Shown piece by piece: positions 11,968 to 42,170 of a stretch of DNA of 64,000 bases. Where the stretch lies: positions 1 to 64,000 of the forward strand of contig NZ_SMJX01000004.1 of assembly GCF_004348535.1 (NCBI RefSeq), read 5' to 3'. The position numbers and the translations under genes were made by a program. The notes beneath the pieces were generated by a model that made no database searches, was not told where the DNA came from, and was given only the letters and a program-made list of their open reading frames with translations. The stretch is from Actinomadura sp. KC216. GTDB lineage: Bacteria; Actinomycetota; Actinomycetes; Streptosporangiales; Streptosporangiaceae. Every line of letters starts with the position of its first letter. Within the stretch, counting starts at the first letter, position 1.

Positions 11968-12040
11968 CCCCTCCCGAAGACCGCGAAGAAAGTTTCTGGT
12001 AGATCGATGAGTTCTCGCGGCGGCGCCGGTCTATCCCGGC

Positions 12041-13555: not shown

Positions 13556-13576
13556 GAATCGGAGATCGACAGACCA

Positions 13577-13629: not shown

Positions 13630-13636
13630 GTGAAGA

Positions 13637-16587: not shown

Positions 16588-16607
16588 CCACCACTCGCCC
16601 CTAGGCG

Positions 16608-16650
16608 GAGCGGGTTCCAGCCGGAGCACGGGGCCGGCTGGGACCCGCTC
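16608..16650 (+). promoter_or_regulatory. Intercistronic hairpin after the binding-protein gene
   Basis: GAGCGGGTTCCAGCCGG pairs with CCGGCTGGGACCCGCTC, a 17-bp stem with a single mismatch and a 9-bp loop, between the binding-protein stop and the first permease. Such stems usually protect the upstream message or attenuate read-through, giving more binding protein than membrane components. Confidence 0.75.
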
Positions 16651-16671
16651 GAACCAGAACGGAGGATCGGC

Positions 16672-17616: not shown

Positions 17617-18557
17617 CCCAAAGTGACAGCGTCGACCTCCGCAAGACGGCCACCGAATCGGCCACCGCACCGGCCACCGTGCCGGTCGAGGACGGCGCCG
17701 ACCTCGTCGGGCACGTCTCCCGCGGGCGCGCCACCCTGCGCCGGTTCCGCGCCAACAAGTCGGCCGTCATCGGCGCCGGGCTGCTGCTCCTGATCATCGT
17801 CGTGACCGCGGCGGCCCCGCTCATCGCCCCCTACGGGCAGGCGGAGGTCAACATCAGCGACCGGCTGTCCGGGCCGACCGGGGAACACTGGCTCGGCACC
17901 GACGCGCTGGGACGCGACACGCTGAGCCGCCTCATGTACGGCGGGCGCGTGTCGCTCGCGGCGGCCGGGCTCGCCGTCCTGATCGCGACGCTCATCGGCC
18001 TGCCGCTCGGGCTCATCGGCGGCTACTTCGGCGGGATCGTCGACTGGTTCCTGGACCGGGCCGCGGACGTGCTCATGTCGTTCCCCGCGATCGTCCTGAC
18101 CATCGCGATCATCGCGGCGGTCGGGCCGGGGCTCACCACCGCGATGGTGTCCCTGGGCATCGTGTACGCGCCGCGCATGTACCGCGTGGTCCGCGGCAGC
18201 ACGATCGAGGTCCGGCGCGAGGTCTACATCGAGGCGTCGACCAGCATCGGGACGCCGAGCCTGATGATCCTGCGGAGGCGGGTCCTGCCGAACATCCTGC
18301 CGGCGACGCTCGTGCAGCTGTCGTTCCTGCTCGCGTCCGCGCTGCTGGCCGAGGTGACCGTCAGCCTGCTGGGCCTCGGCGCGCTGCCGCCGACGGCGAG
18401 CTGGGGCAGCATGCTCGGGCAGGCGTTCCAGGAGATGCGCAGCCAGCCGTCGCTCGCCGTCTATCCCGGGATCGCGATCGCGATCGCGACGCTGTGCTTC
18501 AACCTTGTCGGCGACGGCCTCCGCGACGCCTTCGGCCGCGAGACGAGGAAGGCCTGA
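17613..18557 (+). CDS. ABC importer permease, DppC type
   Basis: 314 residues. The N-terminal 45 residues are cytosolic and Thr/Ala-rich, then comes the OppC N-terminal helix (LRRFRANKSAVIGAGLLLLI) and the GTDALGRDTLSRLMYGGRVS signature of DppC-like permeases; the EAA loop is IEASTSIGTPSLMILRRRVL. ATG 17613 is fixed by overlap with the DppB-type stop. Pairs with the upstream permease. Its own stop overlaps an ATG that opens the GC-rich junction element before the first ATPase. Confidence 0.9.
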   Translation: MTQSDSVDLRKTATESATAPATVPVEDGADLVGHVSRGRATLRRFRANKSAVIGAGLLLLIIVVTAAAPLIAPYGQAEVNISDRLSGPTGEHWLGTDALGRDTLSRLMYGGRVSLAAAGLAVLIATLIGLPLGLIGGYFGGIVDWFLDRAADVLMSFPAIVLTIAIIAAVGPGLTTAMVSLGIVYAPRMYRVVRGSTIEVRREVYIEASTSIGTPSLMILRRRVLPNILPATLVQLSFLLASALLAEVTVSLLGLGALPPTASWGSMLGQAFQEMRSQPSLAVYPGIAIAIATLCFNLVGDGLRDAFGRETRKA

Positions 18558-18631
18558 TGACCGGAGCGAAGCGAGGATCTTCGGGCCTTCCCCCTCGGGG
18601 GCCTGGGGGGCGTTCCCCAGAAAGGCAGGGC
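18557..18631 (+). repeat. GC-rich palindromic junction element before the first ATPase gene
   Basis: The block opens with ATGACCGGAGCGAAGCGAGG, in which the ATG overlaps the permease stop, continues through CCCCCTCGGGGG and CTGGGGGGCGTTCCCCAG (both self-complementary), and ends in AAAGGCAGGGC just before ATG 18632. It remains open in the ATPase frame (25 codons). Architecture and the GAGCGAAGCGA core match the element at 6996-7049. Confidence 0.6.
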
Positions 18632-19642
18632 ATGAGCATGGGGAAGAGCGAAGGCGACCGGCTGTTGCAGATCGAGGATCTGCACGTCGACTTCCTGACC
18701 GATCGCGGGTGGACGAACGTCGTCGCGGGCGTGTCCTTCGACGTCGGGCCAGGCGAGATCGTGGGCCTGGTCGGCGAGTCGGGGTCGGGCAAGAGCGTCA
18801 CGAGCCTGTCGGTGCTGCGGCTGCTCCCGGACGGGTACGCGCGCACCCCGTCCGGCCGGATCCTCTACCAGGGCCGCGACCTGATCGGCATGCCCGCGCG
18901 GGCGCTGCGCGACATCCGCGGCAACGAGATTTCGATGATCTTCCAGGAGCCGATGACGAGCCTGAACCCGGCGTTCACCATCGGCGACCAGATCGCCGAG
19001 GTGTACCGGCGGCACAAGGGCGGCTCGCGGCGCGCCGCGTTCGCCCGCGCGGCGGAGATGCTCGACCTCGTCGGGATCCCGGACGCGGGCAGCCGCGTCA
19101 AGGACTACCCGCACGAGTTCTCCGGCGGGATGCGGCAGCGGGCCATGATCGCGATGGCGCTGGCCTGCGAGCCGAAGCTGCTCATCGCGGACGAGCCCGC
19201 CACCGCCCTCGACGTGACCGTCCAGGCGCAGATCGTCGCGCTGCTCTCGCGGCTCCGCGACGAGACCGGCTGCGGCATCCTCTTCATCACCCACGACCTC
19301 GGGCTCGTCGTCGAGCTGGCCGACCGGGTCGTCGTGATGTACGCGGGCGAGGTGGTGGAGACCGCGGACGCGCTCGACCTCTACAACGCGCCGAAGCATC
19401 CGTACACGGCGGGGCTGCTGAGCGCCATGCCGCATCTCGGGGTTCGCGGGAAGGAGCTGCCGACGATCCCCGGCCGCACCCCCGAGCCGTGGCGGATGCC
19501 GGAGGGCTGCAGGTTCAGCCCCAGGTGCGGGTACACGAGCGACGAATGCGTGGCCGCGCCGCCCGCGCTCCGGATCGTCGAGGCAGGCCGCAGCGCCCGC
19601 TGCTGCCGAACCGAGCAGTTGCGTTTGGTGGGTTCCCCATGA
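18632..19642 (+). CDS. ABC importer ATPase, DppD type
   Basis: 336 residues. Walker A GESGSGKS at about residue 50, signature motif [15 protein letters not shown], Walker [10 protein letters not shown] and the switch His in FITHDLG are all present. The C-terminal oligopeptide/dipeptide-transporter domain contains [10 protein letters not shown] and DECVAAPP, with the cysteines that bind an iron-sulfur cluster in some homologues. I use ATG 18632 (MSMGKSEGD); an in-frame ATG at 18557 would add 25 Gly/Arg/Pro residues encoded by the junction element. The stop overlaps the next ATPase start. Confidence 0.9.
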
Positions 19643-20760
19643 GCATCAAGAAGGTCAGTGCGGACGCGCCGGGGACGACCTCTGAGCCGGGGGTCGAGTC
19701 CGAGCCGGTGACGGCGTCCGAGCCGGGTTCCGCGTCCGCGGGCGGGCCGCTTGTGGACGTCCGCGACGTCAGCGTCGTGTTCCGGAAGAAGCGGACGCTG
19801 GCGGCGGCGCGGCAGGTGCGCGCGGTCAACGACGTCACCTTCCACATCGACCAGGGCGAGACGTTCGGGCTGGTCGGCGAGTCGGGGTCGGGGAAGTCGA
19901 CGACCGGGCGGGCGCTGCTGAAGCTGGTGCCGACGGTGAGCGGGTCCATCAGGGTGGCCGGGCATGACGTCACGTCCCTGCGCGGCAGTGCCCTGCGCAA
20001 GGCGCGGCGCAGCATGCAGATGGTGTTCCAGGACCCGTACTCGTCGCTGGACCCGTCGTCCACGGTGGCGGCGAGCATCGCCGAGCCGCTCGTCGTCCAC
20101 GAGAAGCTGTCGGCGAAGGCGGCGCGCAGCCGGGTGCACGAGCTGATCGAGATGGTCGGGCTCCGCGCGAGCTACGCCGACCGGTACCCGTACGAGTTCT
20201 CGGGCGGGCAGCGGCAGCGGCTCGCGATCGCGCGGGCGATCGCGCTGAACCCGCGGTTCGTCGTCTGCGACGAGGCCGTGTCCGCGCTGGACGTCTCCAC
20301 CCAGAACCAGGTCATCAACCTGCTGGAGAGGCTGCGGTCGGAGTTCAAGCTGACGTACCTTTTCATCGCGCACGACCTGGCGATCGTCCGGCACATCTCG
20401 CACCGGGTCGGGGTCATGTACCTCGGCCGGATCGTGGAGACCGGCCCGGCGGAGCGGGTCTACGGCGCGCCGGCGCATCCGTACACCCAGGCGCTGCTGT
20501 CGGCGATCCCCGACCCGCGCCGGGAGTCGGAGCGGATCGTCCTGGAGGGGGATCTCCCGGACCCGGCGAAGCCGCCGGTGGGGTGCCCGTTCCAGACGCG
20601 GTGCAGGTTCGTCATGGACGTCTGCAGGCAGCGGATGCCCGAGCACACCGCGGTCGAGGGCGGCGGGGAGGTCGCGTGCCATCTGCAGACGAGCGGCCCC
20701 ACGCTGGCGGGCTCGCCGCTGCACGATCTCGCGCCGACCCGTGTCGCGGCGGCGCCATGA
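19639..20760 (+). CDS. ABC importer ATPase, DppF type
   Basis: 373 residues. About 35 N-terminal residues are low complexity (repeated SEPG/SEPV units). The ATPase core has Walker [12 protein letters not shown], the FSGGQRQRLAIARAI signature, VVCDEAVSALD and the HDLAIVRH switch, and the C-terminal extension has GCPFQTRCRF and VCRQRMPE cysteines. ATG 19639 overlaps the previous stop by 4 bases. Last gene of the importer operon; a 112-bp gap with the shared operator motif separates it from gntR. Confidence 0.9.
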   Translation: MSIKKVSADAPGTTSEPGVESEPVTASEPGSASAGGPLVDVRDVSVVFRKKRTLAAARQVRAVNDVTFHIDQGETFGLVGESGSGKSTTGRALLKLVPTVSGSIRVAGHDVTSLRGSALRKARRSMQMVFQDPYSSLDPSSTVAASIAEPLVVHEKLSAKAARSRVHELIEMVGLRASYADRYPYEFSGGQRQRLAIARAIALNPRFVVCDEAVSALDVSTQNQVINLLERLRSEFKLTYLFIAHDLAIVRHISHRVGVMYLGRIVETGPAERVYGAPAHPYTQALLSAIPDPRRESERIVLEGDLPDPAKPPVGCPFQTRCRFVMDVCRQRMPEHTAVEGGGEVACHLQTSGPTLAGSPLHDLAPTRVAAAP

Positions 20761-20872: not shown

Positions 20873-21550
20873 GTGACCGACCCGAAGCTCGACCTGACGA
20901 TCGACCGCCCCGCCGAATCCGTCCCGGAGATGGTCGTGCGGCGTATTCGCGACGCGATCGCCGCGGGCCTGCTCCCGCCCGGTCGTCAGCTCACCGAGCG
21001 CGAACTCGTCGAACTGACCGGCGTGAGCCGGACGTCCGTGCGGGAGGCCATGCGGCACCTGCAGACCCTGGGGCTCGTGGAGCCGTCGCCGAGCCGCGGC
21101 GTCCGCGTGGCGAGGCTCGGCAGCGACGAGGTACGGGAGATCTACGAGGTCCGCGACGCGCTGGAGCCCGCCGCGGCGGAGCTGTTCGTCCTGCGCGCGA
21201 CCGACGAGGAGGTCGCCGCGCTCGTGGAGAAGGTCCAGCCGCGCGACTCCGGCGACAAGCGGCTCCAGGCCATATACGAGTTCGACGAACTGCTCCTCGC
21301 GGGCGCCCGCAACTCGCTGCTGAAGTCGATGCTGGAGCCCCTGCACACGCGCATCCACGCGCTGCGCAGCCTTTCGGTGACCATTCCCGGCCGGCATGAG
21401 GCGTCCGCGCGGGAATACCTCGAACTCGCCGAGGCGATCGCCGCCCGCTCGCCCGAGCGCGCGGCCGAGGCGGCGCACCGCCATGTCCGGGCGGCCGCGA
21501 AGGCGGCCCTTGAAGCTGTGGAAATCCTCGAGAAGAAGCACCCGAAGTAA
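20873..21550 (+). CDS. GntR-family regulator, FadR (FCD) subfamily
   Basis: 225 residues from a GTG start with AAGGA 6 bases upstream. The winged helix is at about residues 18-85 (RIRDAIAAGLLPPGRQLTER, ELTGVSRTSVREAMRHLQTL), and the FCD helical effector domain follows, with the metal-type ligands partly visible (DEVREIYEVRDALEP, EFDELLLAGARN, HRHVRAAAKAALE). FCD regulators typically sense carboxylic acids or acyl-CoAs. Located between the importer genes and the catabolic genes, with the same operator motif upstream of both transcription units, it is the probable master switch of the 14.8-34.0 kb system. Confidence 0.88.
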   Translation: MTDPKLDLTIDRPAESVPEMVVRRIRDAIAAGLLPPGRQLTERELVELTGVSRTSVREAMRHLQTLGLVEPSPSRGVRVARLGSDEVREIYEVRDALEPAAAELFVLRATDEEVAALVEKVQPRDSGDKRLQAIYEFDELLLAGARNSLLKSMLEPLHTRIHALRSLSVTIPGRHEASAREYLELAEAIAARSPERAAEAAHRHVRAAAKAALEAVEILEKKHPK

Positions 21551-21610: not shown

Positions 21611-22741
21611 ATGGCCATGAAGGATGTGGCAATCGTCGGCGTCGGTTCGTCGGACTTCCGGCGGCTTTACGCGGACAAGAGCCAGCCCAACGATGTGTAC
21701 CAACTCGCCGCAGAGGCGTTCAGGGACGCCCTGGACGACTGCGGCGCCACTCAACAGGACATCGACGGACTCCTCTGCATCAACATCAAGTACGGCCAGT
21801 TCGGAGAGACGGCCGGGGTCACCGGGCCGGGGTTCGTCCACGACCTGGAAGGCACCGGACGGATGGCCGGCGTCGCCCTGCAGGAGGCATGCGCCCTCGT
21901 CCGCTCGGGAATGGCGGACATGGTCGCCTGCGTGTACGCGACGAACGGCAGGACGGCGGGCACGAAATACGGCGGCGGGGACGCCGATCCGGCGGGCGCC
22001 TACGACGCCATGTACGGAATGACGTCCACGGGCGCCTACGTGTCGATGATGTACCAGCGGTACCGCGCCATGTACGGGGCACCGGACGACGCGCTGGCCC
22101 CGCTCGCCATCAACAATCGCGCGAACGGCGCCCGCAACCCGATCGCGGTGTTCCAGAAGGAGATCGACCGCGACGAGTACCTCTCGTCGCGGTACATCGC
22201 CGAGCCGCTGCGCAAGCTGGACTACTGCATCATCAACGACGGCGCCGTTGTGTTCATCGTGACGTCCGCCGACCGGGCCCGCGACATGCGGAAGAAACCC
22301 GTCCTGGTGGCGGGCACGGCCGGCCGCGCCGAGCTGAGCCGCAGCTACATCAGCCCCGACTTCTACTTCGAGACGAGCGCGGCCGTGGCCGACCGGCTCT
22401 ACCGGGAGACGGGAATCGGCCCGGACCAGATCGACTGCATGCAGGTGTACGACAACTTCCTCCCGACCATTCTCTTCACGCTGGAGGGTTTCGGTCACGC
22501 GCCTCGCGGCGGGTCCTGGGAATGGATCCGCGACGGATGGATCGAGCTCGGCGGGAAACGCCCGATGAACACCTCGGGCGGCCATACGAGCGAGAGCTAC
22601 ATGCAGGGCTTCGCGTTCCATGTGGAAGCGGTACGGCAACTGCGCGGCGAAGCCGGTGACCGGCAGGTCGAGAACTGCAGGACCGTGCAGTACATGTGCG
22701 TCTCGCCCATCGTGACATCGCACATCTTCGTGGCCGACTAG
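21611..22741 (+). CDS. Thiolase-fold protein, Ltp2-like candidate aldolase (pair 1)
   Basis: 376 residues of the SCP-x/lipid-transfer branch of the thiolase superfamily. The usual nucleophilic Cys position is occupied by E80 in HDLEGTGRMAG, and the SCP-x motif LHDCF is replaced by VYDNF (Y280). The C-terminal substrate-site region reads NTSGGHTSESYMQGF. Cys loss and His-to-Tyr change are features I know from Ltp2, the steroid side-chain aldolase that works in complex with a DUF35 protein; a DUF35 gene follows after 14 bp. I therefore infer retro-aldol or related C-C chemistry on a 3-hydroxyacyl-CoA rather than thiolysis. An alternative is acyl transfer as in PhlC. Confidence 0.75.
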   Translation: MAMKDVAIVGVGSSDFRRLYADKSQPNDVYQLAAEAFRDALDDCGATQQDIDGLLCINIKYGQFGETAGVTGPGFVHDLEGTGRMAGVALQEACALVRSGMADMVACVYATNGRTAGTKYGGGDADPAGAYDAMYGMTSTGAYVSMMYQRYRAMYGAPDDALAPLAINNRANGARNPIAVFQKEIDRDEYLSSRYIAEPLRKLDYCIINDGAVVFIVTSADRARDMRKKPVLVAGTAGRAELSRSYISPDFYFETSAAVADRLYRETGIGPDQIDCMQVYDNFLPTILFTLEGFGHAPRGGSWEWIRDGWIELGGKRPMNTSGGHTSESYMQGFAFHVEAVRQLRGEAGDRQVENCRTVQYMCVSPIVTSHIFVAD

Positions 22742-22755
22742 AAGGGGGCAAGCCG

Positions 22756-23184
22756 ATGGACGTCGCGGCCTACGCGAAACTCTTGCCGGACATCACCCCG
22801 CGCAACAAGCCGTTCTGGGACGGCTGCGAAGCCGGCGAGCTCCGCCTCCAGAAATGCGCGGACTGCGGGCGGCACCGCTTCCCGGACGCCCCCGTGTGCC
22901 CCGAGTGCCTTTCCAGCTCGGCCACCTGGGAGGCCGTCAGCGGAGCCGGAACCATCTGGTCGTGGTGCACGATGCACCAGAAATATTTCGCCGCGTTCGC
23001 CGATGAGGTCCCTTACCGGCTTGTTTATGTGCGGCTGGCCGAGGGTCCGCTCGTGATCAGCGTACTGGCCGACGAACCGACCGAAGAACTGCGCCTCGAC
23101 CAGCCGGTTCACGCGGTGTTCCGGCCGAGTCCCGGCGGGCGGGTCATTCCACAGTTCAGCACCGGCGTTGCCGCAGGGAAGTGA
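22756..23184 (+). CDS. DUF35 Zn-ribbon/OB-fold partner protein (pair 1)
   Basis: 142 residues. An N-terminal helix is followed by a rubredoxin-like zinc ribbon with C-x2-C pairs (KCADCGRHRFPDAPVCPEC) at about residues 35-53 and an OB-fold (VSGAGTIWSWCTMHQKYFA to the end). DUF35 proteins hold acyl-CoA substrates for thiolase-fold partners, as ChsH2 does for Ltp2 and PhlB for PhlC. ATG 22756 gives the expected family start; RBS GAAGGGGG precedes it. Encoded 14 bp downstream of thiolase-fold protein 1, so the two probably form one complex. Confidence 0.85.
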   Translation: MDVAAYAKLLPDITPRNKPFWDGCEAGELRLQKCADCGRHRFPDAPVCPECLSSSATWEAVSGAGTIWSWCTMHQKYFAAFADEVPYRLVYVRLAEGPLVISVLADEPTEELRLDQPVHAVFRPSPGGRVIPQFSTGVAAGK

Positions 23185-23196
23185 GGTTGAACTCCC

Positions 23197-24003
23197 ATGG
23201 ATTCGATCGCTGACCACGACCTCGTCCGGTACGAGGACCTGTCCGACGGCGTCGCGCGCATCACGCTGAACCGTCCCGAGAAACGCAACGCGATGAGCCG
23301 GGCCGCGCGCGCGGCACTGCTGGACGTCCTGGACCGCTGCGACGGCGAGGCCAAGGTGATCATCCTCACCGGAGCCGGGCCGGCCTTCTGCGCGGGCGTC
23401 GACCTCAAGGAGTCCGCCGAGGAGGACATCGACGCCGACCGCCGCGGCGCGGGGCGGCGCACGAGCTGGCTCACCGTCCAGGAGCGCATCCGGCAGCACT
23501 CGGCGATCGTCATCGCCGCCGTCAACGGGTACGCGCTCGGCGGCGGGCTCACCCTCATCAACTCGAGCGATCTCGCCGTCGCCGCCGACGACGCGCCGAT
23601 CGGGATGCCCGAGGTCGGCTTCGGCCTGTATCCCGGGCTCGCGGGCCCGTCCACGCAGCTCAGGCTCGGGGCGAAGCGCGCGGCCTGGATGGTGTTGACC
23701 GCCGACCGGATCACCGGCGCGACGGCGGCGGAATGGGGCCTGGTGAACGCCGCCGTCCCGGCCGCCGAGCTCCAGTCCGCCGCGCTCGACCTCGCGCGGC
23801 GCGTCGCCCGGCACAACGCGGTGACGCTGACGTGGGCGAAGCGCGCCCTCCACGAGATCCCCATGTACATCTCGGACTGGACGAAGGCCCTCGAGTACGG
23901 TGAGGACGTCCGGCACCAGATCACGGCACGCTCGGACGTGCTCGACGACCGCCATGCGACGCACCGGATGGCGGTCGGCCGGACCGGCGACGGCGCGCGA
24001 TGA
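23197..24003 (+). CDS. Enoyl-CoA hydratase/isomerase family protein
   Basis: 268 residues of the crotonase fold. The oxyanion-hole segments are GAGPAFCAGVDLKES (about residues 62-76) and NGYALGGGLTLINS (about 109-122), and the second catalytic region is GMPEVGFGLYPGLAGPSTQL; this loop holds one acidic residue (E in MPEVGFG). It probably hydrates an alpha,beta-unsaturated acyl-CoA to the 3-hydroxyacyl-CoA, which would be the substrate of an adjacent aldolase-like thiolase. The stop overlaps the CoA-transferase start (ATGA). Confidence 0.88.
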   Translation: MDSIADHDLVRYEDLSDGVARITLNRPEKRNAMSRAARAALLDVLDRCDGEAKVIILTGAGPAFCAGVDLKESAEEDIDADRRGAGRRTSWLTVQERIRQHSAIVIAAVNGYALGGGLTLINSSDLAVAADDAPIGMPEVGFGLYPGLAGPSTQLRLGAKRAAWMVLTADRITGATAAEWGLVNAAVPAAELQSAALDLARRVARHNAVTLTWAKRALHEIPMYISDWTKALEYGEDVRHQITARSDVLDDRHATHRMAVGRTGDGAR

Positions 24004-26366
24004 ACCGTCCAGACGCCGCCGCCGGGGGAGCCACGCGAACCGGCAGGGTTCTCCGGGTGGTCGAGCTCGCCGAGGGCGTGGCCGCCCAGGTCTGCGGGCG
24101 GCTGCTCGCCGGCCTCGGCCACACCGTGACCAAATGCGAACCGCCGGGCGGCGACCCGCTCCGCACCCGCGAGCCGGTCGACGCCGGCGGCCTGAGCTAC
24201 ACCTTCGCCGCGCTGAACGCCGACAAGCGGAGCGTTCGGCTCGATCCGTCCACCCCGGAGGGCCGCGACCGCCTGACGGAGCTGCTCGCGGCGGCCGACG
24301 TCCTGATCACCGACGTCGGCCCGCGCAGGTCGGCGGAGACCGGGCTCACCCCGGCCGGCCTGCGCGCCGCCCATCCGCGGCTGGTCGTCGTCGCGATCAC
24401 GCCCTACGGCGCCGGCGACCCGCGCTCTGACGCCTACGGCGACAGCCTGCTCGCCGAGTGCTACGGGGGCCTGGCCGCGATGGTCGGCGAGCCGGACCGG
24501 CGCCCGCTGAGCCTCGGCGGCGAGCAGGTGGCGCACGCCGCCGCGTTCGTGGCCTTCTACGGAGCCATGCTCGCGCTCCGCCGCCCGGGCGGCGATGTCG
24601 TGGACGTCGCGCTCTGCGACGTTGCCGCGTACATCGACTGGAAGAGCGACATCGTCTACACCGAGACCGGCCAGATCCCCGTCCGGACGGGCACGAGCAT
24701 CGGCCGCTGGCGGACGGTCGAGGCCGCGGACGGCTGGATCGGGTTCATCTTCCAGCCGGAGCAGTGGGACAGCGTCGTGAAGCTCGTCGGCGACCCCGCG
24801 CTCGAAGACCCCAGGCTGCGCGGCGACAAGGCGCGCTTCGAGCTGGTCGACTCCTGGTGGCCGGCCGTCGAGCGGTGGGCCGCGCAGCGCACCAAGCGGG
24901 AGATCTACCACGCCGCGCAGCGCCTCGGCCTGCCGTTCGGCTACGGCGCCGACCTGGCCGACCTGGCCGCCGACCCCCAGTACCAGGCCAGGTCGTTCAT
25001 CTCGGACGGCGACGGCGCGACGCTGGCCCCGCTGGTCGGCCTCCCGTGGCGCTTCGGCCCCCCACCGTCCCTGACCGGCGACGACGACGAAGCCGCCGAG
25101 CCCACCCCGCTCCGACCCGTCCCGCCACAACCCGTCCCGCACACGGCGGACGGCCGGGGCAGGGCCCCGCTCGAAGGGTTCGTCGTCCTCGACCTCGGCA
25201 CCATCACGGCGGGGGCCGCCACCGGACGGCTCCTCGCCGACTACGGCGCCACGGTCATCAAGATCGAGGCGAGGGAGCGGCCGGACGCGTTCCGCGTGTG
25301 GCCGGTGCCCGGCGCGGGCGACGCCGAGGTCATGGAGGAGTCGCCGCTCTTCGAGTCGAACAACGCCGGCAAGCTGGGCGTCACGCTCGACCTGAAGACC
25401 GAGGCCGGGCGGGCGGAGATGCGGCGGCTCGTCGCGCGCTCCGACGCGCTGATCGAGAACTTCACCGTCGGCGTCACGCGCCGCCTCGGCATCGACTTCC
25501 CGACGCTGATCGAGGTCAACCCGCGGCTGATCTACCTGTCGCTGTCCAGCCAGGGGCAGTCGGGCCCCGAGTCGGGCACCCGGTCCTACGGCTCCAGCCT
25601 CGACCTGCTGTCCGGCCTCGCGTCGGTCACCGGGTACGCGGGGGAGCGCCCGATGTGGTCGTCGGCCGACATCAACTACCCCGACCAGATCGTCTCCCTC
25701 TTCGGTGCCGGTCTGATCGCGTACTGCGCGGTCCAGGACCTGCGCGGAACGTACCTCGATGTGTCGCAGCGCGAGCTCGTGAGCTGGACGCTCGCCGACC
25801 GCATCATCGAGCATCTCGACACCGGGACCGTTCCGGAGCCGTCCGGCAACCGGCGTCCCGGCAGCACCCCGCACGACGTGTACCGGTGCGACGGCGACGA
25901 CCAGTGGATCGCCATCGCCTGCCGGACGGACGCCGAACGCGCCGCGCTCGCGGCCCTCATCGGCGCCGACCGGATGGCGGGCGAACCGGCCCGCTGGTGG
26001 GAGGAGAACCACCGCGAGGTCGACGCCGCGATCAGTGCCTGGACCCGGCGGCGCCGGAAGGACGCGTGCGTCCGCGAGCTGACCCGGGCCGGGGTACCGT
26101 CCGCGCCGGTCCAGTCCGCCCGCGAACGCGCCGAAGATCCGCATTTCCGGCGCCGCCGGGTCTTCCTCGACGAACCACGCAGGCAGAAGGGCTTCCCGCT
26201 GCGGCTGTTCGGCTACGAGCCGCCGCAGCCCCGCCCGGCCCCGAGCCTCGGCCAGCACGACACAGAGATACGAAACGGCCTCTTGCCAGGCCCAGGGGAC
26301 GCCGGGGACGTGCCCGCCCCGCGCCCCGCCGAGTTGCCGTCCCCGCGTCCGGGAGGATCCCTATGA
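24000..26366 (+). CDS. Tandem-fused class III (CaiB/BaiF) CoA-transferase
   Basis: 788 residues containing two complete CaiB/BaiF domains: about 12-385 (VLRVVELAEGVAAQVCGRLL..) and about 393-765 (FVVLDLGTITAGAATGRLL..), joined by a Pro-rich linker. These enzymes move CoA between carboxylic acids through an aspartyl-CoA intermediate. The second domain keeps the aspartate (D562 in INYPDQIVSLFG); the aligned place in the first domain reads GGEQVAHAAAFV with no Asp, so that half may be structural. Fused doubles are less common than single-domain enzymes of about 400 residues. It probably activates the imported or released acid as a CoA ester. The stop overlaps the next start by 4 bases. Confidence 0.85.
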   Translation: MNRPDAAAGGATRTGRVLRVVELAEGVAAQVCGRLLAGLGHTVTKCEPPGGDPLRTREPVDAGGLSYTFAALNADKRSVRLDPSTPEGRDRLTELLAAADVLITDVGPRRSAETGLTPAGLRAAHPRLVVVAITPYGAGDPRSDAYGDSLLAECYGGLAAMVGEPDRRPLSLGGEQVAHAAAFVAFYGAMLALRRPGGDVVDVALCDVAAYIDWKSDIVYTETGQIPVRTGTSIGRWRTVEAADGWIGFIFQPEQWDSVVKLVGDPALEDPRLRGDKARFELVDSWWPAVERWAAQRTKREIYHAAQRLGLPFGYGADLADLAADPQYQARSFISDGDGATLAPLVGLPWRFGPPPSLTGDDDEAAEPTPLRPVPPQPVPHTADGRGRAPLEGFVVLDLGTITAGAATGRLLADYGATVIKIEARERPDAFRVWPVPGAGDAEVMEESPLFESNNAGKLGVTLDLKTEAGRAEMRRLVARSDALIENFTVGVTRRLGIDFPTLIEVNPRLIYLSLSSQGQSGPESGTRSYGSSLDLLSGLASVTGYAGERPMWSSADINYPDQIVSLFGAGLIAYCAVQDLRGTYLDVSQRELVSWTLADRIIEHLDTGTVPEPSGNRRPGSTPHDVYRCDGDDQWIAIACRTDAERAALAALIGADRMAGEPARWWEENHREVDAAISAWTRRRRKDACVRELTRAGVPSAPVQSARERAEDPHFRRRRVFLDEPRRQKGFPLRLFGYEPPQPRPAPSLGQHDTEIRNGLLPGPGDAGDVPAPRPAELPSPRPGGSL

Positions 26367-27538
26367 ACGCCAACGATGCCGCAGTGATCATCGGTGCCTA
26401 TGAGCATCCAGGCCGCGAGCTGCCGGACAAATCGCTGGCACAGATCCACGCAGAGGTAGCCATCGGGGCCCTCGCAGACGCGGGACTGACCCTCGACGAC
26501 GTAGACGGCTACTTCTGCGGCCACGACGCGCCCGGGTACGGCGGCGGCTGGGTCACGATGGCCGAGTACCTGGGCCTGCGCAACCTCACCTACATGGACT
26601 CGACGGAGAGCGGCGGCGCCTCGCCGATCTACCACGTGTCGCACGCGGCGGCGGCGATCGCGGCCGGGAAGTGCAGCGTCGCGCTGATCACGCTGGCGGG
26701 CAAGCCGCGGACGGGCATCCAGCCGGGCGGCGGCGGCCCGGCCCGCCCGGAGGACGACTTCGAGACCGCGATCTACACCGGCGCCGGCCTGGTGAGCACC
26801 TACGCGCTCGCCGCCCGCCGCCACATGTACGAGTTCGGCACGACGAGCGAGCAACTGGCCGAGATCAAGGTGGCGGCGTCGAAGCACGCGTCCCACAACC
26901 CGAACGCCTTCCTGCAGAAGGTGCTGACGGTCGAGGACGTCGTCAACTCGCCGATGGTCGCCGACCCGCTGCACCGCGCCGACTGCTGCGTGGTCACGGA
27001 CGGCGGCGGCGCCGTGGTCGTCGTCAGCCGCGAGGTCGCCCGCGGCCTGGACCGGCAGGCGGTGAAGATCATGGGGCAGGGCGAGGCGGCGAAACTGACC
27101 AACGGCGGCAAGGTCGACCTCACCTACACGAGCGCGGTGTGGTCCGGGCCGCGGGCGTTCGAGCAAGCCGGAGTTACGCCGCAGGACGTCGACTACGTGT
27201 CGATCTACGACAGCTTCACGATCACCGTCCTGGAGATCCTGGAGGACCTCGGCTTCTGCGCGAAGGGCGAGGGCGGACGCTTCGTCATGGACGGGACGCT
27301 CGTCGCCCCCCACGGCAAGCTCCCGTTCAACACCGACGGCGGCGGGCTGAGCAACAACCATCCGGGCCACCGCGGCGGGATCACCAAGACCATCGAGGCG
27401 GTGCGGCAGCTGCGGGGCGAGGCGAACCAGGGCGTGCAGATCCCCGACTGCGAGATCGCCCTGGTGCACGGCAACGGCGGCGACCTGGGCACCCGGATGC
27501 GCAGCGCCACGATGATCCTTGGGAGGGACGGCGAATGA
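26363..27538 (+). CDS. Thiolase-fold protein, Ltp2-like candidate aldolase (pair 2)
   Basis: 391 residues. The region of the thiolase Cys reads MDSTESGGASPIYH (residues 78-91), without Cys, and the SCP-x LHDCF motif is SIYDSF with Y282, the same His-to-Tyr replacement as pair 1. The C-terminal active-site loop NTDGGGLSNNHPGHRGG is better preserved than in pair 1. The two thiolase-fold proteins differ strongly, so they are not a recent duplication and may act on successive intermediates. A DUF35 gene overlaps the stop by 4 bases. Function as an aldolase is inferred from residue changes and pairing. Confidence 0.75.
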   Translation: MNANDAAVIIGAYEHPGRELPDKSLAQIHAEVAIGALADAGLTLDDVDGYFCGHDAPGYGGGWVTMAEYLGLRNLTYMDSTESGGASPIYHVSHAAAAIAAGKCSVALITLAGKPRTGIQPGGGGPARPEDDFETAIYTGAGLVSTYALAARRHMYEFGTTSEQLAEIKVAASKHASHNPNAFLQKVLTVEDVVNSPMVADPLHRADCCVVTDGGGAVVVVSREVARGLDRQAVKIMGQGEAAKLTNGGKVDLTYTSAVWSGPRAFEQAGVTPQDVDYVSIYDSFTITVLEILEDLGFCAKGEGGRFVMDGTLVAPHGKLPFNTDGGGLSNNHPGHRGGITKTIEAVRQLRGEANQGVQIPDCEIALVHGNGGDLGTRMRSATMILGRDGE

Positions 27539-27981
27539 GCGAGGTACGGAGCCCGGTGCTGCCCGCGACGCCGCCGGTGATCAACCCGGACACCGCGGAG
27601 TTCTGGAAGGCGACCACCGAGGGCACGTTCCTCGGCCGCCGCTGCGACGACTGCGGGTCGGCGATCTGGTACCCGCGGCCGATCTGCCCGTTCTGCCACG
27701 GCTCGAACACGCGGTGGGAGGAGTTCAGCGGGCGCGGCTCCGTCTACTCCTACAGCGTCGTCCACCGGGCCGGGGGCGCGTGGAAGGGCGTCACGCCGTA
27801 CGTCCTCGCCTATGTGGAGCTTGAGGAAGGGCCCCGGGTGATGACCAACATCGTCGACTGCGACGTCGAGAAGGTCGCCATCGGGGACGCGGTGGAAGTG
27901 GTGTTCGAGGACACCGGAAACGGCAGCGCGCTGCCCCGCTTCCGTCCGGTGCAGAGCGCAGAGGAAAAGGGACAGGCATGA
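27535..27981 (+). CDS. DUF35 Zn-ribbon/OB-fold partner protein (pair 2)
   Basis: 148 residues with the DUF35 layout: N-terminal helix (DTAEFWKATTEGTFLGRRC), zinc ribbon CDDCGSAIWYPRPICPFC and OB-fold starting at SGRGSVYSYSVVHRA. ATG 27535 overlaps the thiolase-fold stop, consistent with making the two chains together for a complex. The stop in turn overlaps the CoA-transferase start. Likely presents an acyl-CoA to the thiolase-fold partner. Confidence 0.87.
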   Translation: MSEVRSPVLPATPPVINPDTAEFWKATTEGTFLGRRCDDCGSAIWYPRPICPFCHGSNTRWEEFSGRGSVYSYSVVHRAGGAWKGVTPYVLAYVELEEGPRVMTNIVDCDVEKVAIGDAVEVVFEDTGNGSALPRFRPVQSAEEKGQA

Positions 27982-29369
27982 CCATCAACAAGGTGTACGA
28001 GTCTCCGCTGGCGGCCGTCGCCGACGTCCCGGACGGCGCGAGCGTGTCGATCGCGGGTTTCGGCAAGACCCACAGCTTCCCGACGAGCCTCACCGTCGCC
28101 CTCCGGGAGCAGGGCGCCCGGCAGCTCTGCCTGGTCGCCAACTCGCTCGGCGAGGGCCCCTACCGTTCGATCACCCTCGTGGAGAACCGGCAGGTCAACC
28201 GCCTGATCGTGTCGTTCTCGGCGCGGGCGGGGGAGGCGACGTCGGCGGCCGAGAAGCAGATCGCCGCGGGCGAGATCGAGGTCGAGCTGGTGCCGCAGGG
28301 CACGCTCGTCGAGCGGCTCCGCGCCGGGGGCGCCGGGATCGGCGCGTTCTTCACCCGCACCGCCGTCGGCACCGCGGTCGCGGAAGGCAAGGAAACCCGT
28401 GTGATCAACGGTGTCGAGCACGTCCTGGAAATGGGGCTGAAGGTCGACTACGCGCTGATCCGCGCCGCCCGCGCCGACCGCTTCGGCAACCTGGAGTTCG
28501 ACGGCGTCGGACGCAATTTCATGCCCGCCTTCGCCAAGGGCGCCGAAATCACGATCGCCGAAGTGGACGAGATCGTCGAGGGCGAGCTGGACCCCGAGCG
28601 CATCGGGCTCCCGGGCATCTTCGTGAGCAGGGTCGTCCGCAAGACGGTCGACGTCCCGCACGACTTCCCGGTGGTGCGGGAGGGGCGCGGCGCCGACAGC
28701 GCCCGCACCTACAACGGCAAGCAGGCGCTGACCCGCAAGCAGATGGCGGAGGTCGCGGCCGGGCTCGTGCCGAACGGCAGCTACATGAACCTGGGCCTCG
28801 GAATCCCGACGCTCATCTCCGATTACATTTCGGGGCGCGACATCGTCCTGCATTCGGAGAACGGCGTGCTCGGCTACGGGACGATCGCGTCCCGCGAAGA
28901 CTACGACCCCGAGATATACAACGCGGGCGGCCAGTACGTGCACCTGGAGAAGGGCGCGTCGTTCTTCGAGAGCGTGACGTCGTTCGAGATGGTGCGCGGC
29001 GGCAAGGTCGACTTCGTCGCGCTCGGCGCGTTCCAGGTGGACGCCGACGCCAACCTCGCCAACTGGAGCACCCCGAACATGGTCGGCGGCGGCATCGGCG
29101 GCGCCATGGATCTGGTCGCGGGCGACGTCAACGTGATGGTGCTGATGATGCACTGCGACTCCAAGGGCAACCCGAAGCTCGTCAATTCCTGCGAGTACCC
29201 GCTGACCGGGCTGAACTGCGTCAACATCGTCGTCACCGACCTGTGCGTGCTGCGCCGCGTCGGCGAGGTGTTCAAACTCGAATACGTGGCGCCGGGGTTC
29301 ACGGTCGACGAGGTCGCCGCGCTCACCGAGTTCGAATTCGACGCGTCGGACTTCGAGCCGGCGGCGTAG
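27978..29369 (+). CDS. Fused alpha-beta 3-oxoacid-type CoA-transferase (class I)
   Basis: 463 residues combining both subunits of the SCOT/acetate CoA-transferase family in one chain: A domain about 1-230 (SVSIAGFGKTHSFPTSLTVAL, with GVGT-type segment AFFTRTAVGTAVAEGKE) and B domain about 245-463. The catalytic glutamate is E294 in LHSENGVLGYG. It would move CoA between a short dicarboxylate or acetate and a 3-oxoacid, giving a second CoA-activation or salvage step in the pathway. Overlaps the DUF35 stop by 4 bases and is 8 bp from the amidase start. Confidence 0.88.
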   Translation: MTINKVYESPLAAVADVPDGASVSIAGFGKTHSFPTSLTVALREQGARQLCLVANSLGEGPYRSITLVENRQVNRLIVSFSARAGEATSAAEKQIAAGEIEVELVPQGTLVERLRAGGAGIGAFFTRTAVGTAVAEGKETRVINGVEHVLEMGLKVDYALIRAARADRFGNLEFDGVGRNFMPAFAKGAEITIAEVDEIVEGELDPERIGLPGIFVSRVVRKTVDVPHDFPVVREGRGADSARTYNGKQALTRKQMAEVAAGLVPNGSYMNLGLGIPTLISDYISGRDIVLHSENGVLGYGTIASREDYDPEIYNAGGQYVHLEKGASFFESVTSFEMVRGGKVDFVALGAFQVDADANLANWSTPNMVGGGIGGAMDLVAGDVNVMVLMMHCDSKGNPKLVNSCEYPLTGLNCVNIVVTDLCVLRRVGEVFKLEYVAPGFTVDEVAALTEFEFDASDFEPAA

Positions 29370-29377: not shown

Positions 29378-30760
29378 GTGTCGGATCTCGCCGGAATGAC
29401 GGCCGCGGAGCTGGCCGGGGCGTACGCGCGGCGCGACGTGTCGCCGGTGGAGGCGACCCGCGCCGCGCTGGCCGCGATCGAGGAGCGCGACGCCGAGCTG
29501 AACGCGTTCGTCCTGGTCGACGCCGACGCCGCGCTCCGGTCGGCGGCCGAATCGGAGGCCCGCTGGTCGGCCGGGACGCAGCGCGGCCGGGCCGACGGCG
29601 TCCCCACGTCGGTCAAGGACCTCGAACGGACCCGCGGCTGGCCGACGCTCCGCGGAACCTGGCTGGCGGACGAGGCAGGCCCATGGCCGGAGGACTCGCC
29701 GAGCGTGGCCAGGCTCCGCGAGGCGGGCGCGGTCCTGATCGGCAAGACCACGACACCGGAGTTCGGCTGGAAGGGCGTCACGGACTCGGACCGGTTCGGG
29801 ATCACCAGGAACCCGCTGGACCCGGCGCTGACGCCCGGCGGTTCCAGCGGCGGCTCGGCGGCGGCGGTCGCGGCCGGGATGGGCACGTGGTCGGTCGGCA
29901 CGGACGGCGGCGGGTCCGTCCGGGTGCCGGCGGCCTTCACCGGGACGGTCGGCTTCAAGCCGACCGGCGACCTGATCGCGACGTACCCGCCGGGCAGCAA
30001 CGGCCTTCTCTCCCACCGCGGCCCGATCACCCGGACGGTCCTAGACGCCGCCATCATGCTCGACGTGATCGGCCGCCCCGACCCCCGAGACTGGGCCGCG
30101 CTGCCCGCCCGGGACGGCTCGTTCACAGACGGCATCGAAGAAGGCGTCAAGGGCCTGACCATCGGCTACTCGCCCGACCTCGGCTACGGACGCAACGACC
30201 CGGAAGTGGCGTCGCTGGTCGCCGACGCGATCGACGCCCTGGCCGACCTGGGCGCACACGTCACAGAGATCGAGCCGATCTTCGACGATCCCGTAGAGGC
30301 GTTTCAAACACTCTGGTGCGCCGGAGTGGCCCGCACGCTCAAGCCCTACGGCCCGGACGACCTGACCCGGGTAGACCCGGCGCTCCTCGAGTACGCGGAG
30401 AAGGGCCGCGGAATCACCGCCGTCGAATACCTGGACGCGATGGCCGTCTGCGCAAATCTCGGCCTCCAAATGGCGCGGTTCCACGACAAATACGACCTAC
30501 TGGCGACGCCGACCGTCCCATGCGTCGCGTTCCCGGCGGGGCAGAACGGCCCGGCCCCCGAGCAGTCGCAGGTCTGGGCGTCGTGGACGCCCTACACCTA
30601 CCCCTTCAACATGACCAGGCAACCGGCGCTGAGCGTGCCGTGCGGCCGCACGCGTTCCGCCGGGCTCCCGGCCGGGCTCCAGCTGGTGGGTCCCCGCCAC
30701 CAGGACGCCCGCGTGCTCAGGGCGGGACGCGCCTACGAGACGAGAGGACAGCAGGCATGA
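29378..30760 (+). CDS. Amidase-signature family hydrolase
   Basis: 460 residues from GTG 29378 with the Ser-cisSer-Lys triad visible: K80 (TSVKDLERTRG), the cis-Ser in GGSSGGSAAAV (about S156/S157) and the nucleophile S180 in GTDGGGSVRVPAAF. Hydrolyses a carboxamide, releasing a carboxylate and ammonia or an amine. No signal peptide, so it acts in the cytoplasm after import. Placed between the CoA-transferase and the aldehyde dehydrogenase with an ATGA overlap to the latter, it suggests the imported compound or an intermediate contains an amide bond. Confidence 0.88.
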   Translation: MSDLAGMTAAELAGAYARRDVSPVEATRAALAAIEERDAELNAFVLVDADAALRSAAESEARWSAGTQRGRADGVPTSVKDLERTRGWPTLRGTWLADEAGPWPEDSPSVARLREAGAVLIGKTTTPEFGWKGVTDSDRFGITRNPLDPALTPGGSSGGSAAAVAAGMGTWSVGTDGGGSVRVPAAFTGTVGFKPTGDLIATYPPGSNGLLSHRGPITRTVLDAAIMLDVIGRPDPRDWAALPARDGSFTDGIEEGVKGLTIGYSPDLGYGRNDPEVASLVADAIDALADLGAHVTEIEPIFDDPVEAFQTLWCAGVARTLKPYGPDDLTRVDPALLEYAEKGRGITAVEYLDAMAVCANLGLQMARFHDKYDLLATPTVPCVAFPAGQNGPAPEQSQVWASWTPYTYPFNMTRQPALSVPCGRTRSAGLPAGLQLVGPRHQDARVLRAGRAYETRGQQA

Positions 30761-32196
30761 CGGACCTACCCGCGGTCGAGAACCTGATCAACGGGGAATG
30801 GCTGCGCAGCGACCACGAACGCACGGTGCACCACAAGTTCACCGGCGCACCCCTGGCGACGTCGTACGACGCGACGCCCGCCATGGTGACCAACGCCGTG
30901 ACCGTCGCCCGCGCCGCGAGCCGCACCCCCCTCAACCCCCTGCAGCGCTACGAGATCCTCCGCGCGGTCGCCGACCAGATCGCGGCGAACCGCGAGCAGC
31001 TCGCCCTGGACGTGGCCCGCGAGTCCGGGTTCAGCGTGAAGGACTGCCTGGGCGACACCGACCGCGCCGTGCAGACGATGCTGACGTCCGCCGAGGAGGC
31101 GAAGCGGATCGACGGCGAGGTCGTCCCGATCCAGGCCGCGCCCGGGTTCGCGCACCGCCTCGCGTTCACGATCCGCACGCCGGTCGGCGTGGTCGGCGCG
31201 ATCACGCCGTTCAACTCGCCGCTGAACACCGTCGCCCACAAGGTCGGACCGGCGCTCGCGGCCGGGAACGCGGTGATCGTCAAGCCGTCCCCGTTCACAC
31301 CGATCGCCGCCGCCGCGCTCTGCCGGATGCTGCTGGACGCGGGCCTGCCGCCGGGCCTGATCGGCCTGGTGCTCGGCCCGGGCGACCCGGTCGGGCAGGC
31401 CCTCGTGGACGACGAGCGCGTCGACTTCATCACCTTCACCGGCAGCACCGCCGCCGGAAAGGCCATCTCCGCACGCCTCGGCATGCGCCGCGCGACGATG
31501 GAGTGCGGCAACGTGTCCGCGACCATCGTGTGCCGGGACGCCGATGTCCTCTCGGCAGCCCAGCAATGCGCGCGGGGCGCGTTCCGCAAGTCGGGCCAGG
31601 TATGCACGTCCGTACAGCGCCTCTACATCCACACGGACGTCCTGGACGAATTCCTGGGCGAACTGTCCGCCGCCGCATCGAAGCTCGTCCTGGGAGACCC
31701 GGAGGACCCGTCGACCGACATCGGTCCGATGATCAGCGAGGCGGCGGCGAAGCGCGCCGAGGAATGGGTGCACGCCGCCGTCGACCAGGGCGCCCGGATC
31801 GTGACCGGCGGCGACCGGACGGGCCCGATGATGTCCCCGACGATCCTGGTCGACGTGGCGCCCGACGCGCGGCTGCTCTGCGAGGAGGCGTTCGCGCCCG
31901 TCGTCTCCGTCGTCCCCTTCGACGACCTCGACGCCGTGATCGACAAGGTGAACGACACCCCGTACGGCCTCCAGGCGGGCATCTTCACCCGGGACCTCGA
32001 CACCGCCCTCACCGCCGCCAAGACCCTCCGGATGGGCGGCGTCGTGATCAACTCGACGTCGAGCACGCGCGCGGACCTGATGCCGTACGGCGGCGTCAAG
32101 GACAGCGGCTACGGCACCGAAGGCCCCCGCTACGCCATCCGGGACATGACGGAGGAGCGCCTGATCCTGATGGAGCCCGCCGGCGGATCGAGGTAG
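30757..32196 (+). CDS. NAD(P)-dependent aldehyde dehydrogenase
   Basis: 479 residues with the aldehyde dehydrogenase fold. Coenzyme-site ITPFNSPLNTVAHKVGPAL and VKPSPFTP, the FTGSTAAGKAISARL segment, and the catalytic Cys in RKSGQVCTSVQRLYI are present. The general-base region reads MECGNVSATIV, where most members have ELGG; the Glu is kept but LGG is altered, an unusual version. It may oxidise the aldehyde released by the aldolase-like step. Its start overlaps the amidase stop. Confidence 0.87.
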   Translation: MTDLPAVENLINGEWLRSDHERTVHHKFTGAPLATSYDATPAMVTNAVTVARAASRTPLNPLQRYEILRAVADQIAANREQLALDVARESGFSVKDCLGDTDRAVQTMLTSAEEAKRIDGEVVPIQAAPGFAHRLAFTIRTPVGVVGAITPFNSPLNTVAHKVGPALAAGNAVIVKPSPFTPIAAAALCRMLLDAGLPPGLIGLVLGPGDPVGQALVDDERVDFITFTGSTAAGKAISARLGMRRATMECGNVSATIVCRDADVLSAAQQCARGAFRKSGQVCTSVQRLYIHTDVLDEFLGELSAAASKLVLGDPEDPSTDIGPMISEAAAKRAEEWVHAAVDQGARIVTGGDRTGPMMSPTILVDVAPDARLLCEEAFAPVVSVVPFDDLDAVIDKVNDTPYGLQAGIFTRDLDTALTAAKTLRMGGVVINSTSSTRADLMPYGGVKDSGYGTEGPRYAIRDMTEERLILMEPAGGSR

Positions 32197-42138: not shown

Positions 42139-42170
42139 ACTGCGATCGGATTCGTTCTTCCGGAGCGCAC

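What the first reader, a model, noticed from the sequence alone, without database searches (positions are those of the whole stretch)
21611..27981. Two different thiolase-fold/DUF35 pairs that lack the thiolase cysteine and carry Tyr at the LHDCF position
In both thiolase-fold proteins the nucleophilic Cys position is replaced (E80 region in the first, T/E-S-G-G in the second), and the SCP-x His is Tyr (Y280, Y282). Steroid side-chain aldolase Ltp2 with ChsH2-DUF35 shows this type of change. Having two diverged pairs in one operon suggests two successive side-chain cleavages, or cleavage of two different acyl-CoAs, outside the usual steroid gene context.
Basis: partly seen in the sequence, partly recalled or inferred. 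Interest (0 to 1): 0.7.

Follow-up and report, generated by a model that had tools for sequence, protein, structure and literature searches.

The report
Two non-steroid thiolase-fold aldolase pairs
A conserved actinobacterial gene cluster carries two different enzyme pairs that look like thiolases but have lost the thiolase cysteine and most likely split hydroxy-acids attached to coenzyme A the way a steroid-degrading aldolase does, for a food molecule that is not known and is probably not a steroid.

Summary
Both thiolase-fold proteins (THL1, 21611-22741; THL2, 26363-27538) have Gly at the nucleophilic-Cys column and Tyr (Y280, Y282) where thiolases have His, and each is followed at once by a DUF35 partner with a Cys4 zinc motif. 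THL1 keeps both catalytic Tyr of the steroid aldolase Ltp2 (Y280, Y330) and its model matches Ltp2 best (Z 49.2); it also has a clade-conserved Cys363 in the C-terminal active-site loop. THL2 pairs Tyr282 with the thiolase-type His333, a set not found in the three aldolases compared (Ltp2, Sal, IpfD) but shared with the uncharacterised 4u4e. They lie in separate clades, and the genome has an Ltp2 orthologue elsewhere. The two-pair operon is seen in 15 of 31 loci and reads as two modules, each an aldolase pair plus a CoA-transferase; in the stretches seen, each module also occurs without the other. None of the ten operon proteins scanned is a 3-hydroxyacyl-CoA dehydrogenase, which fits hydration and retro-aldol cleavage rather than thiolysis. 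The substrate is unknown. Non-steroid precedent exists (IpfDE, ibuprofen). Verdict: new variant of a known kind; aldolase function is inferred, not shown.

The parts
14995..20760 (+). ABC importer: family-5 solute-binding protein (14995-16587), then two permeases and two ATPases (these four named by eye)
   Evidence: ORFs, solute-binding protein matches; an SBP relative lies within 12 kb of THL1 on the same strand in 16 of 31 loci
20873..21550 (+). GntR-type regulator directly upstream of THL1
   Evidence: relatives beside THL1 in 20 of 31 loci; named by eye, no family search run on it
21611..22741 (+). THL1, thiolase-fold protein, proposed retro-aldolase: G83 at the Cys column, Y280-D-N282-F, E328-S-Y330, C363
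22756..23184 (+). DUF35a, partner of THL1 (ATG start; C34-x2-C37-x10-C48-x2-C51)
   Evidence: a DUF35 gene follows THL1 in 30 of 31 loci, the other cut off
23197..24003 (+). Crotonase-family protein (ECH), proposed hydratase; the first of the two hydratase Glu is Thr, the second is kept
   Evidence: in the four Actinomadura loci that lack it a 71-73% copy sits in a second THL1-type operon
24000..26366 (+). CaiB2, two fused class III CoA-transferase halves; the C half has Asp (NYPDQ), the N half Ala at that column
   Evidence: best solved relative: benzylsuccinate CoA-transferase subunit 9fn0; the halves lie apart on either side of the crotonase in L052 and L055
26363..27538 (+). THL2, thiolase-fold protein, proposed retro-aldolase: G85 at the Cys column, Y282-D-S284-F, H333-P-G, H369
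   Evidence: (NF006010 over cut-off)
27535..27981 (+). DUF35b, partner of THL2 (C37-x2-C40-x10-C51-x2-C54)
27978..29369 (+). 3-oxoacid CoA-transferase (A and B fused) with the SENG Glu (residue 294)
   Evidence: same order THL2-DUF35-CoA-transferase on an Agrobacterium vitis plasmid
29396..30760 (+). Amidase of the signature family (start not fixed; ATG 29396 is one possibility)
   Evidence: (NF004815 over cut-off)
30757..32196 (+). Aldehyde dehydrogenase (nearest models lactaldehyde, phosphonoacetaldehyde, sulfoacetaldehyde DH, all below cut-off)
32208..33260 (+). Ldh_2-family 2-hydroxyacid dehydrogenase
   Evidence: relative of 65% identity or more in 10 of 10 actinobacterial operon genomes searched
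33257..34042 (+). Metallo-beta-lactamase-fold hydrolase, lactonase-like (HLHWDH)
   Evidence: 4-pyridoxolactonase and AHL-lactonase models, far below cut-off

Best explanation
Each thiolase-fold/DUF35 pair is a retro-aldolase complex that cleaves a 3-hydroxyacyl-CoA into an aldehyde or ketone plus acetyl-CoA or propionyl-CoA. In module A the fused CoA-transferase (CaiB2) loads an unsaturated acid with CoA, the crotonase hydrates it, and THL1-DUF35a cleaves it: Tyr280 takes the proton from the beta-hydroxyl, and Tyr330 (or Cys363) protonates the enolate. In module B the 3-oxoacid CoA-transferase loads a second acid and THL2-DUF35b cleaves it with Tyr282 as base and His333 as the likely acid. 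The aldehyde is oxidised by the aldehyde dehydrogenase, and 2-hydroxyacids by the Ldh_2 enzyme; amidase and lactonase unmask carboxylates of an imported compound. Shown here: gene content, order and conservation, residue conservation, clades, predicted fold. Inferred: complex, catalysis, pairing, pathway direction, products. Unknown: the substrate.
For: Gly at the Cys column in 29 THL1-type, 16 operon THL2 and 33 wider THL2 rows, all that were counted, against Cys in two control rows. Both Ltp2 catalytic Tyr in THL1: Y280 and Y330 invariant in 30 chosen THL1-type and Ltp2-like rows. Best fold match of THL1 is Ltp2-ChsH2(DUF35) 6ok1, Z 49.2, rmsd 2.0 over 364; of THL2 Sal-Shy(DUF35) 9myr, Z 50.9, tied with 4u4e 50.1. 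PMC12329534 (parts 1-4 of 7 read): Ltp2 Tyr294/Tyr344, Sal Tyr302/Cys304, Gly at Sal's Cys position. A DUF35 gene follows THL1 in 30 of 31 loci; PMC12502768 (passages) reports DUF35 as indispensable for Ltp2-type activity. A crotonase belongs to module A: four operons without it have a 71-73% copy in a second THL1-type operon. No 3-hydroxyacyl-CoA dehydrogenase among the ten operon proteins scanned. THL2 relatives sit with a DUF35 gene and MaoC hydratases or a CoA-transferase. IpfD, non-steroid and reported to release propionyl-CoA, has the same Gly/Tyr/Tyr set.
Against: No activity data. SCP-2-type thiolases follow close behind in both fold lists (Z about 41-46), so the fold does not decide. 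The Ltp2 His296 place is Asn282 in THL1, and Sal lost activity with Ser or His at its Cys304, the place where THL2 has Ser284. THL2's loop 327-331 has pLDDT under 50. THL1 Cys363 sits where degradative thiolases have their second Cys (recalled), so altered thiolase chemistry is not fully excluded. Several wider THL2 relatives have an SDR directly upstream and two stretches a 3-hydroxyacyl-CoA dehydrogenase, which could feed a Claisen cleavage there. Two of four opened plasmid loci with THL1 relatives show no annotated hydratase but acyl-CoA dehydrogenases. The single-Glu crotonase might not be a plain hydratase.
Confidence: 0.62

Rival explanations
1. THL1 is the only aldolase; THL2 is a different thiolase-superfamily activity (decarboxylase, acyltransferase or Claisen-type C-C hydrolase) using Tyr282/His333.
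For: THL2 keeps the thiolase-type His (H333) and an H369-G-x-G-G loop and lies in a clade apart from the Tyr/Tyr proteins; several relatives have an SDR next door and two stretches a 3-hydroxyacyl-CoA dehydrogenase.
Against: No Cys at the nucleophile column in 49 of 49 rows; best fold match is the aldolase Sal; nine of ten opened plasmid loci have an annotated hydratase in the stretch.
Confidence: 0.2
2. Both pairs work in the synthetic (aldol or Claisen) direction, making rather than degrading a branched acyl-CoA.
For: Aldol reactions are reversible; the PhlABC acyltransferase is in both fold lists.
Against: Importer, CoA-transferases, amidase, lactonase-like, aldehyde and hydroxyacid dehydrogenases and a GntR gene look catabolic; no PhlA-like third subunit among the ten operon proteins scanned.
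Confidence: 0.1
3. A true steroid side-chain operon that has left the steroid cluster.
For: THL1's best solved relative is Ltp2; a CYP125-like P450 lies beside the core module in Cupriavidus.
Against: The genome has an Ltp2 orthologue elsewhere (L070); no MaoC hydratase or acyl-CoA dehydrogenase among the ten operon proteins scanned; a family-5 importer and a class III CoA-transferase are not usual for steroids (recalled).
Confidence: 0.06

Closest known systems
Ltp2-ChsH2(DUF35) steroid aldolase (6ok1)
   Same: Thiolase fold, Gly for Cys, YDxF Tyr, second Tyr (in THL1), DUF35 partner
   Different: THL1 32% and THL2 34% identical; Asn/Ser for His296; THL2 has His for Tyr344; separate DUF35 gene; crotonase and CoA-transferases instead of ChsH1-ChsH2
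Sal-Shy(DUF35) bile-acid aldolase (9myr) and Atf1-ChsH4
   Same: Fold, Gly for Cys, YD motif; Atf1 has a stand-alone DUF35 partner like these (PMC10398937, passages)
   Different: Sal uses Cys304 and its partner a Cys3His zinc finger; here Asn/Ser and Cys4
IpfDE of ibuprofen catabolism (pIBU218)
   Same: Non-steroid thiolase-fold/DUF35 pair with Gly, Tyr (YDAF) and second Tyr; reported to release propionyl-CoA
   Different: 31-33% identical; beside ring-dioxygenase and AMP-binding protein genes; no Cys363
4u4e, uncharacterised thiolase of Sphaerobacter
   Same: THL2: about 50% identical over aligned columns, same Gly/Tyr/Ser/His set
   Different: No function found; another sub-branch of the THL2 superclade
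Bbs toluene pathway (BbsEF, BbsH, BbsAB; outline recalled)
   Same: Class III CoA-transferase of two halves, crotonase, thiolase-fold/DUF35 pair; CaiB2's best solved match is 9fn0
   Different: Here the transferase is fused, no dehydrogenase is among the operon proteins scanned that would make a 3-oxoacyl-CoA, and the cleaving protein has no Cys at the nucleophile column

Membership tests
SCP-2 / degradative thiolase | Nucleophilic Cys | tested here: not met
   Gly in the THL1 and THL2 rows counted, Cys in two control rows
SCP-2 / degradative thiolase | His of the HDxF motif | tested here: not met
   Tyr in both proteins and in 33 of 33 wider THL2 rows not chosen by motif
SCP-2 / degradative thiolase | Catalytic His of the GHPxG motif (THL2 only; THL1 has Tyr330) | tested here: met
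   H333 in 40 of 41 rows, Gln in one
Ltp2 steroid aldolase | Two catalytic Tyr (294 and 344) (THL1; THL2 has only the first) | tested here: met
   THL1 Y280 and Y330
Ltp2 steroid aldolase | His296 oxyanion residue | tested here: not met
   Asn in THL1, Ser in THL2
Ltp2 steroid aldolase | Groups with Ltp2 in the tree | tested here: not met
   Separate clades; own-genome Ltp2 orthologue is L070 (quick trees)
Ltp2 steroid aldolase | Retro-aldol activity on a 3-hydroxyacyl-CoA | not testable with these tools
   Needs purified enzyme
Sal bile-acid aldolase | Cys304 and Cys3His1 zinc finger | tested here: not met
   Asn282/Ser284; C-x2-C-x10-C-x2-C in both DUF35
IpfDE ibuprofen aldolase | Clade with IpfD | tested here: inconclusive
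   IpfD and L066 fall beside the group that holds THL1 with support 75
PhlABC acyltransferase | Third, HMG-CoA-synthase-like subunit | tested here: not met
   None of the ten operon proteins scanned is of that family
NF006010 (PRK08142) thiolase-domain subfamily | Score over curated cut-off | tested here: met
   THL2 605.9 against 462 bits; THL1 139.5, below

The most novel reading that the evidence does not exclude
The operon contains two new catalytic types of thiolase-fold aldolase, a Tyr/Tyr/Cys363 type (THL1 clade, Actinomycetota to Pseudomonadota and Chloroflexota) and a Tyr/His type (THL2, a large family also in haloarchaea and on plasmids), joined in a general CoA-transferase, hydratase, retro-aldolase route that replaces classical beta-oxidation for an unknown, probably branched or lactone-containing natural acid.
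Probability: 0.3. Interest if true: 0.72.

Novelty: new variant of a known kind. Interest (0 to 1): 0.52.

Why it matters
Databases call these proteins thiolases or lipid-transfer proteins. If they are aldolases, many annotated thiolases of soil bacteria and haloarchaea are misnamed, and a short beta-oxidation bypass (no 3-hydroxyacyl-CoA dehydrogenase, no thiolysis) is common outside steroid catabolism. THL2 gives a clean test of whether a Tyr/His active site can do the aldol reaction, a third solution besides Ltp2's Tyr/Tyr and Sal's Tyr/Cys. Aldolases of this fold may also be of use for making steroid or terpenoid synthons.

Tried and rejected
(2) p-hydroxycinnamoyl-CoA hydratase/lyase as function of the crotonase: best PDB match 2vss, but the NCBIfam model gives 175 against a cut-off of 276 bits, and the phenol-binding Tyr75 (recalled) aligns with Ser. 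(3) The LDH2 hit of Cupriavidus (G403:C29, 54%) as part of its core module: it is on a contig of another length than that of L048, and in the 20 kb fetched (L102) no other operon gene was recognised except a 32% aldehyde dehydrogenase. (4) A substrate from NCBIfam names of the aldehyde dehydrogenase, Ldh_2, lactonase-like and solute-binding proteins: all below cut-off. (5) Literature on the operon: searches of open PMC papers gave nothing on it (listings; parts or passages of four papers seen); most subscription papers are not in that library.

Led nowhere: P450, PrpF, MatC and TTT-type neighbours of the core module in other phyla vary too much to name one substrate.

Rows dropped: cut-off and near-identical rows were left out of the trees (107 of 120 rows used; rows of loci L003, L007-L009, L035, L038, L043, L044, L046, L049, L056, L063, L077, L078, L080, L096-L098 and L069_1665 were dropped where present and 8 plasmid rows added). 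The Cys363 count (23 of 23) comes from that thinned set, chosen by the YDN motif. The trees are quick searches with SH-aLRT support only. For one search fourteen of the 31 loci were given (13 genomes); for five. Of 390 plasmid records matching THL2 ten were opened, of 296 matching THL1 four.
Full report
Observation. The window holds two thiolase-fold genes, each followed at once by a DUF35 gene. I call them THL1 (21611-22741) with DUF35a (22756-23184) and THL2 (26363-27538) with DUF35b (27535-27981). Six junctions from the crotonase to the MBL gene are four-base ATG/stop overlaps (24000/24003, 26363/26366, 27535/27538, 27978/27981, 30757/30760, 33257/33260; start codons checked), so these genes are probably one transcript. 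Pfam places both thiolases in Thiolase_C_1/Thiolase_N and both partners in zf-ChsH2/OB_ChsH2_C. THL1 and THL2 are 26% identical.

Active sites. In an alignment with solved relatives the nucleophilic-Cys column is Gly (G83, G85) in 29 of 29 THL1-type, 16 of 16 operon THL2 and 33 of 33 wider THL2 rows, while the thiolase 7yvy and an SCP-x-type gene of the same genome (L068) have Cys. The first two sets were chosen by their YDN or YDS motif, so the Tyr there is partly by construction; the wider set was not. The column of Ltp2's acid Tyr344 is also that of the catalytic His of thiolases; THL1 has Tyr330 there, THL2 His333. So THL1 keeps both catalytic Tyr of Ltp2, with Asn282 for His296, while THL2 is a Tyr/His hybrid with Ser284. 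THL1 also has Cys363, in 23 of 23 clade rows and 4 of 4 second-operon paralogues, and Gly, Ala, Asn or Val in the other rows printed (the typed Ltp2 chain ends before it). It lies in the C-terminal loop where degradative thiolases carry their second Cys (recalled): not the nucleophile place, but a possible acid/base. Roles of Ltp2 and Sal residues are from PMC12329534, parts 1-4 of 7 read.

Fold and tree. AlphaFold2 models: THL1 mean pLDDT 91.4, THL2 84.6 with weak loops at 122-126, 246-248 and 327-331. By VIA-align THL1 is closest to the Ltp2-ChsH2(DUF35) aldolase (Z 49.2, rmsd 2.0, 364 aligned; next 4u4e 46.5), THL2 to the Sal-Shy(DUF35) aldolase (Z 50.9, rmsd 2.4, 374 aligned), tied with 4u4e (50.1); Ltp2 is at 49.6. 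SCP-2-type thiolases follow close behind, so the fold alone does not decide function. Quick trees put THL1 in a clade of its own among Tyr/Tyr proteins and THL2 inside a superclade with 4u4e (support 99); the own-genome Ltp2 orthologue is a third gene, L070.

Conservation of the operon. A scan of one genome per species gave 31 loci. A DUF35 gene follows THL1 in 30 of 31, the last being cut off. Within 12 kb on the same strand the crotonase is found in 21, CaiB2-like genes in 25, GntR in 20, and THL2, DUF35b, the 3-oxoacid CoA-transferase and the amidase in 15 each. Those 15 are from Actinomadura, Amycolatopsis, Spongiactinospora and Pseudonocardia. The core without THL2 in the stretch held occurs in Cupriavidus, Sphingomonas, Rhizobium and a second Pseudonocardia locus; in two Chloroflexota-type MAG loci (L052, L055) the two CaiB halves lie apart on either side of the crotonase. 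In Cupriavidus the core stands with a P450 whose best solved match is an entry named CYP125MRCA, and P450-like ORFs lie near it in L051 and L053 (by eye). Four Actinomadura operons lack the crotonase; all four genomes carry a 71-73% copy in a second operon with its own THL1 (64-65%), DUF35 (52-55%), GntR, CaiB2 (59-61%), amidohydrolase and importer, without a THL2 or DUF35b orthologue in the stretch, whereas the one genome tested with the gene in place has no such copy. This complementarity argues that the crotonase belongs to the pathway. The Ldh_2 gene has a relative of 65% or more in 10 of 10 actinobacterial operon genomes tested.

Module B elsewhere. THL2 relatives of 60-71% identity occur in other Actinomycetes and on plasmids. 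In all ten plasmid loci opened an OB-fold (DUF35) gene follows. Nine of the ten have an annotated enoyl-CoA hydratase or MaoC gene in the stretch; the tenth, Agrobacterium vitis, has THL2-DUF35-3-oxoacid CoA-transferase in the order of the window. Against a simple aldolase reading, an SDR gene stands directly upstream in several, and two stretches hold a 3-hydroxyacyl-CoA dehydrogenase. The haloarchaeal plasmid also has two thiolase/DUF35 pairs within about 5 kb, as has locus L111 within 7 kb, so two pairs side by side are not unique to this operon.

Partners. CaiB2 is two fused class III CoA-transferase halves. Its C half matches the benzylsuccinate CoA-transferase structure 9fn0 best and aligns NYPDQ with NYTDH; the N half has Ala at that Asp column (that this Asp is the catalytic one is recalled). 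The 3-oxoacid CoA-transferase keeps its SENG Glu. The crotonase keeps one of the two hydratase Glu (roles recalled). None of the ten operon proteins scanned by Pfam is a 3-hydroxyacyl-CoA or acyl-CoA dehydrogenase. A CoA-transferase, a hydratase and a C-C cleaving pair are what a route would need that splits an unsaturated acid by hydration and retro-aldol cleavage.

Precedent. IpfDE on the ibuprofen plasmid pIBU218 is a non-steroid pair reported to give propionyl-CoA and isobutylcatechol (PMC11347016, passages). IpfD (L124) has Gly, YDAF and the second Tyr. The same plasmid carries a second set, CaiB, crotonase, OB-fold and lipid-transfer protein, whose thiolase-fold protein is 59% identical to Ltp2. 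Of four plasmid loci opened with THL1 relatives, an OB-fold gene is adjacent in four and a crotonase adjacent to the pair in two; the other two show acyl-CoA dehydrogenases and no annotated hydratase. Stand-alone DUF35 partners are known from Atf1-ChsH4 (PMC10398937, passages).

Judgement. The sequence facts are firm. Aldolase function is well supported for THL1 and likely for THL2; the substrate is unknown. Separate CoA-transferases and separate distribution favour two different acyl-CoA substrates, or two stages of one pathway, over one enzyme duplicated. I score it as a new variant of a known kind.

Noticed in passing
L114-L117 (Actinomadura macra, rubrisoli, litoris, terrae): A second, paralogous operon GntR-THL1'-DUF35-crotonase-amidohydrolase-CaiB2' with its own importer and aldehyde dehydrogenase; in L114 also a 75% copy of the 3-oxoacid CoA-transferase. 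THL1' keeps Gly83, Tyr280, Asn282, Tyr330 and Cys363 in 4 of 4.
   Followed up: partly
L065 (own genome, contig C91): Two more THL2-superclade genes within 10 kb; one (11839-13800, minus) has Gln in place of the His at the H333 column.
   Followed up: no
L118 6537-10155 (plasmid pIBU218): Besides ipfDE the ibuprofen plasmid carries CaiB, crotonase, OB-fold and lipid-transfer protein genes, the same four gene kinds as module A, with a thiolase-fold protein 59% identical to Ltp2.
   Followed up: partly
L123 5337-10565 (Natrinema caseinilyticum plasmid): Two diverged Tyr/His thiolase-fold/DUF35 pairs side by side in a haloarchaeon, with CoA ester lyase and MaoC genes near.
   Followed up: no
L031, L011 (unnamed Actinomycetes): Relatives whose YD motif is replaced by QDP but which keep the second Tyr; possibly another activity.
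   Followed up: no
window 42027-44710: A flavin-hydroxylase-like ORF followed by an ORF that reads like an extradiol ring-cleavage dioxygenase: perhaps an aromatic catabolic cluster; named by eye only.
   Followed up: no
window 56238-57866: Another solute-binding-protein-like ORF outside the operon, with a twin-arginine-like start; named by eye only.
   Followed up: no
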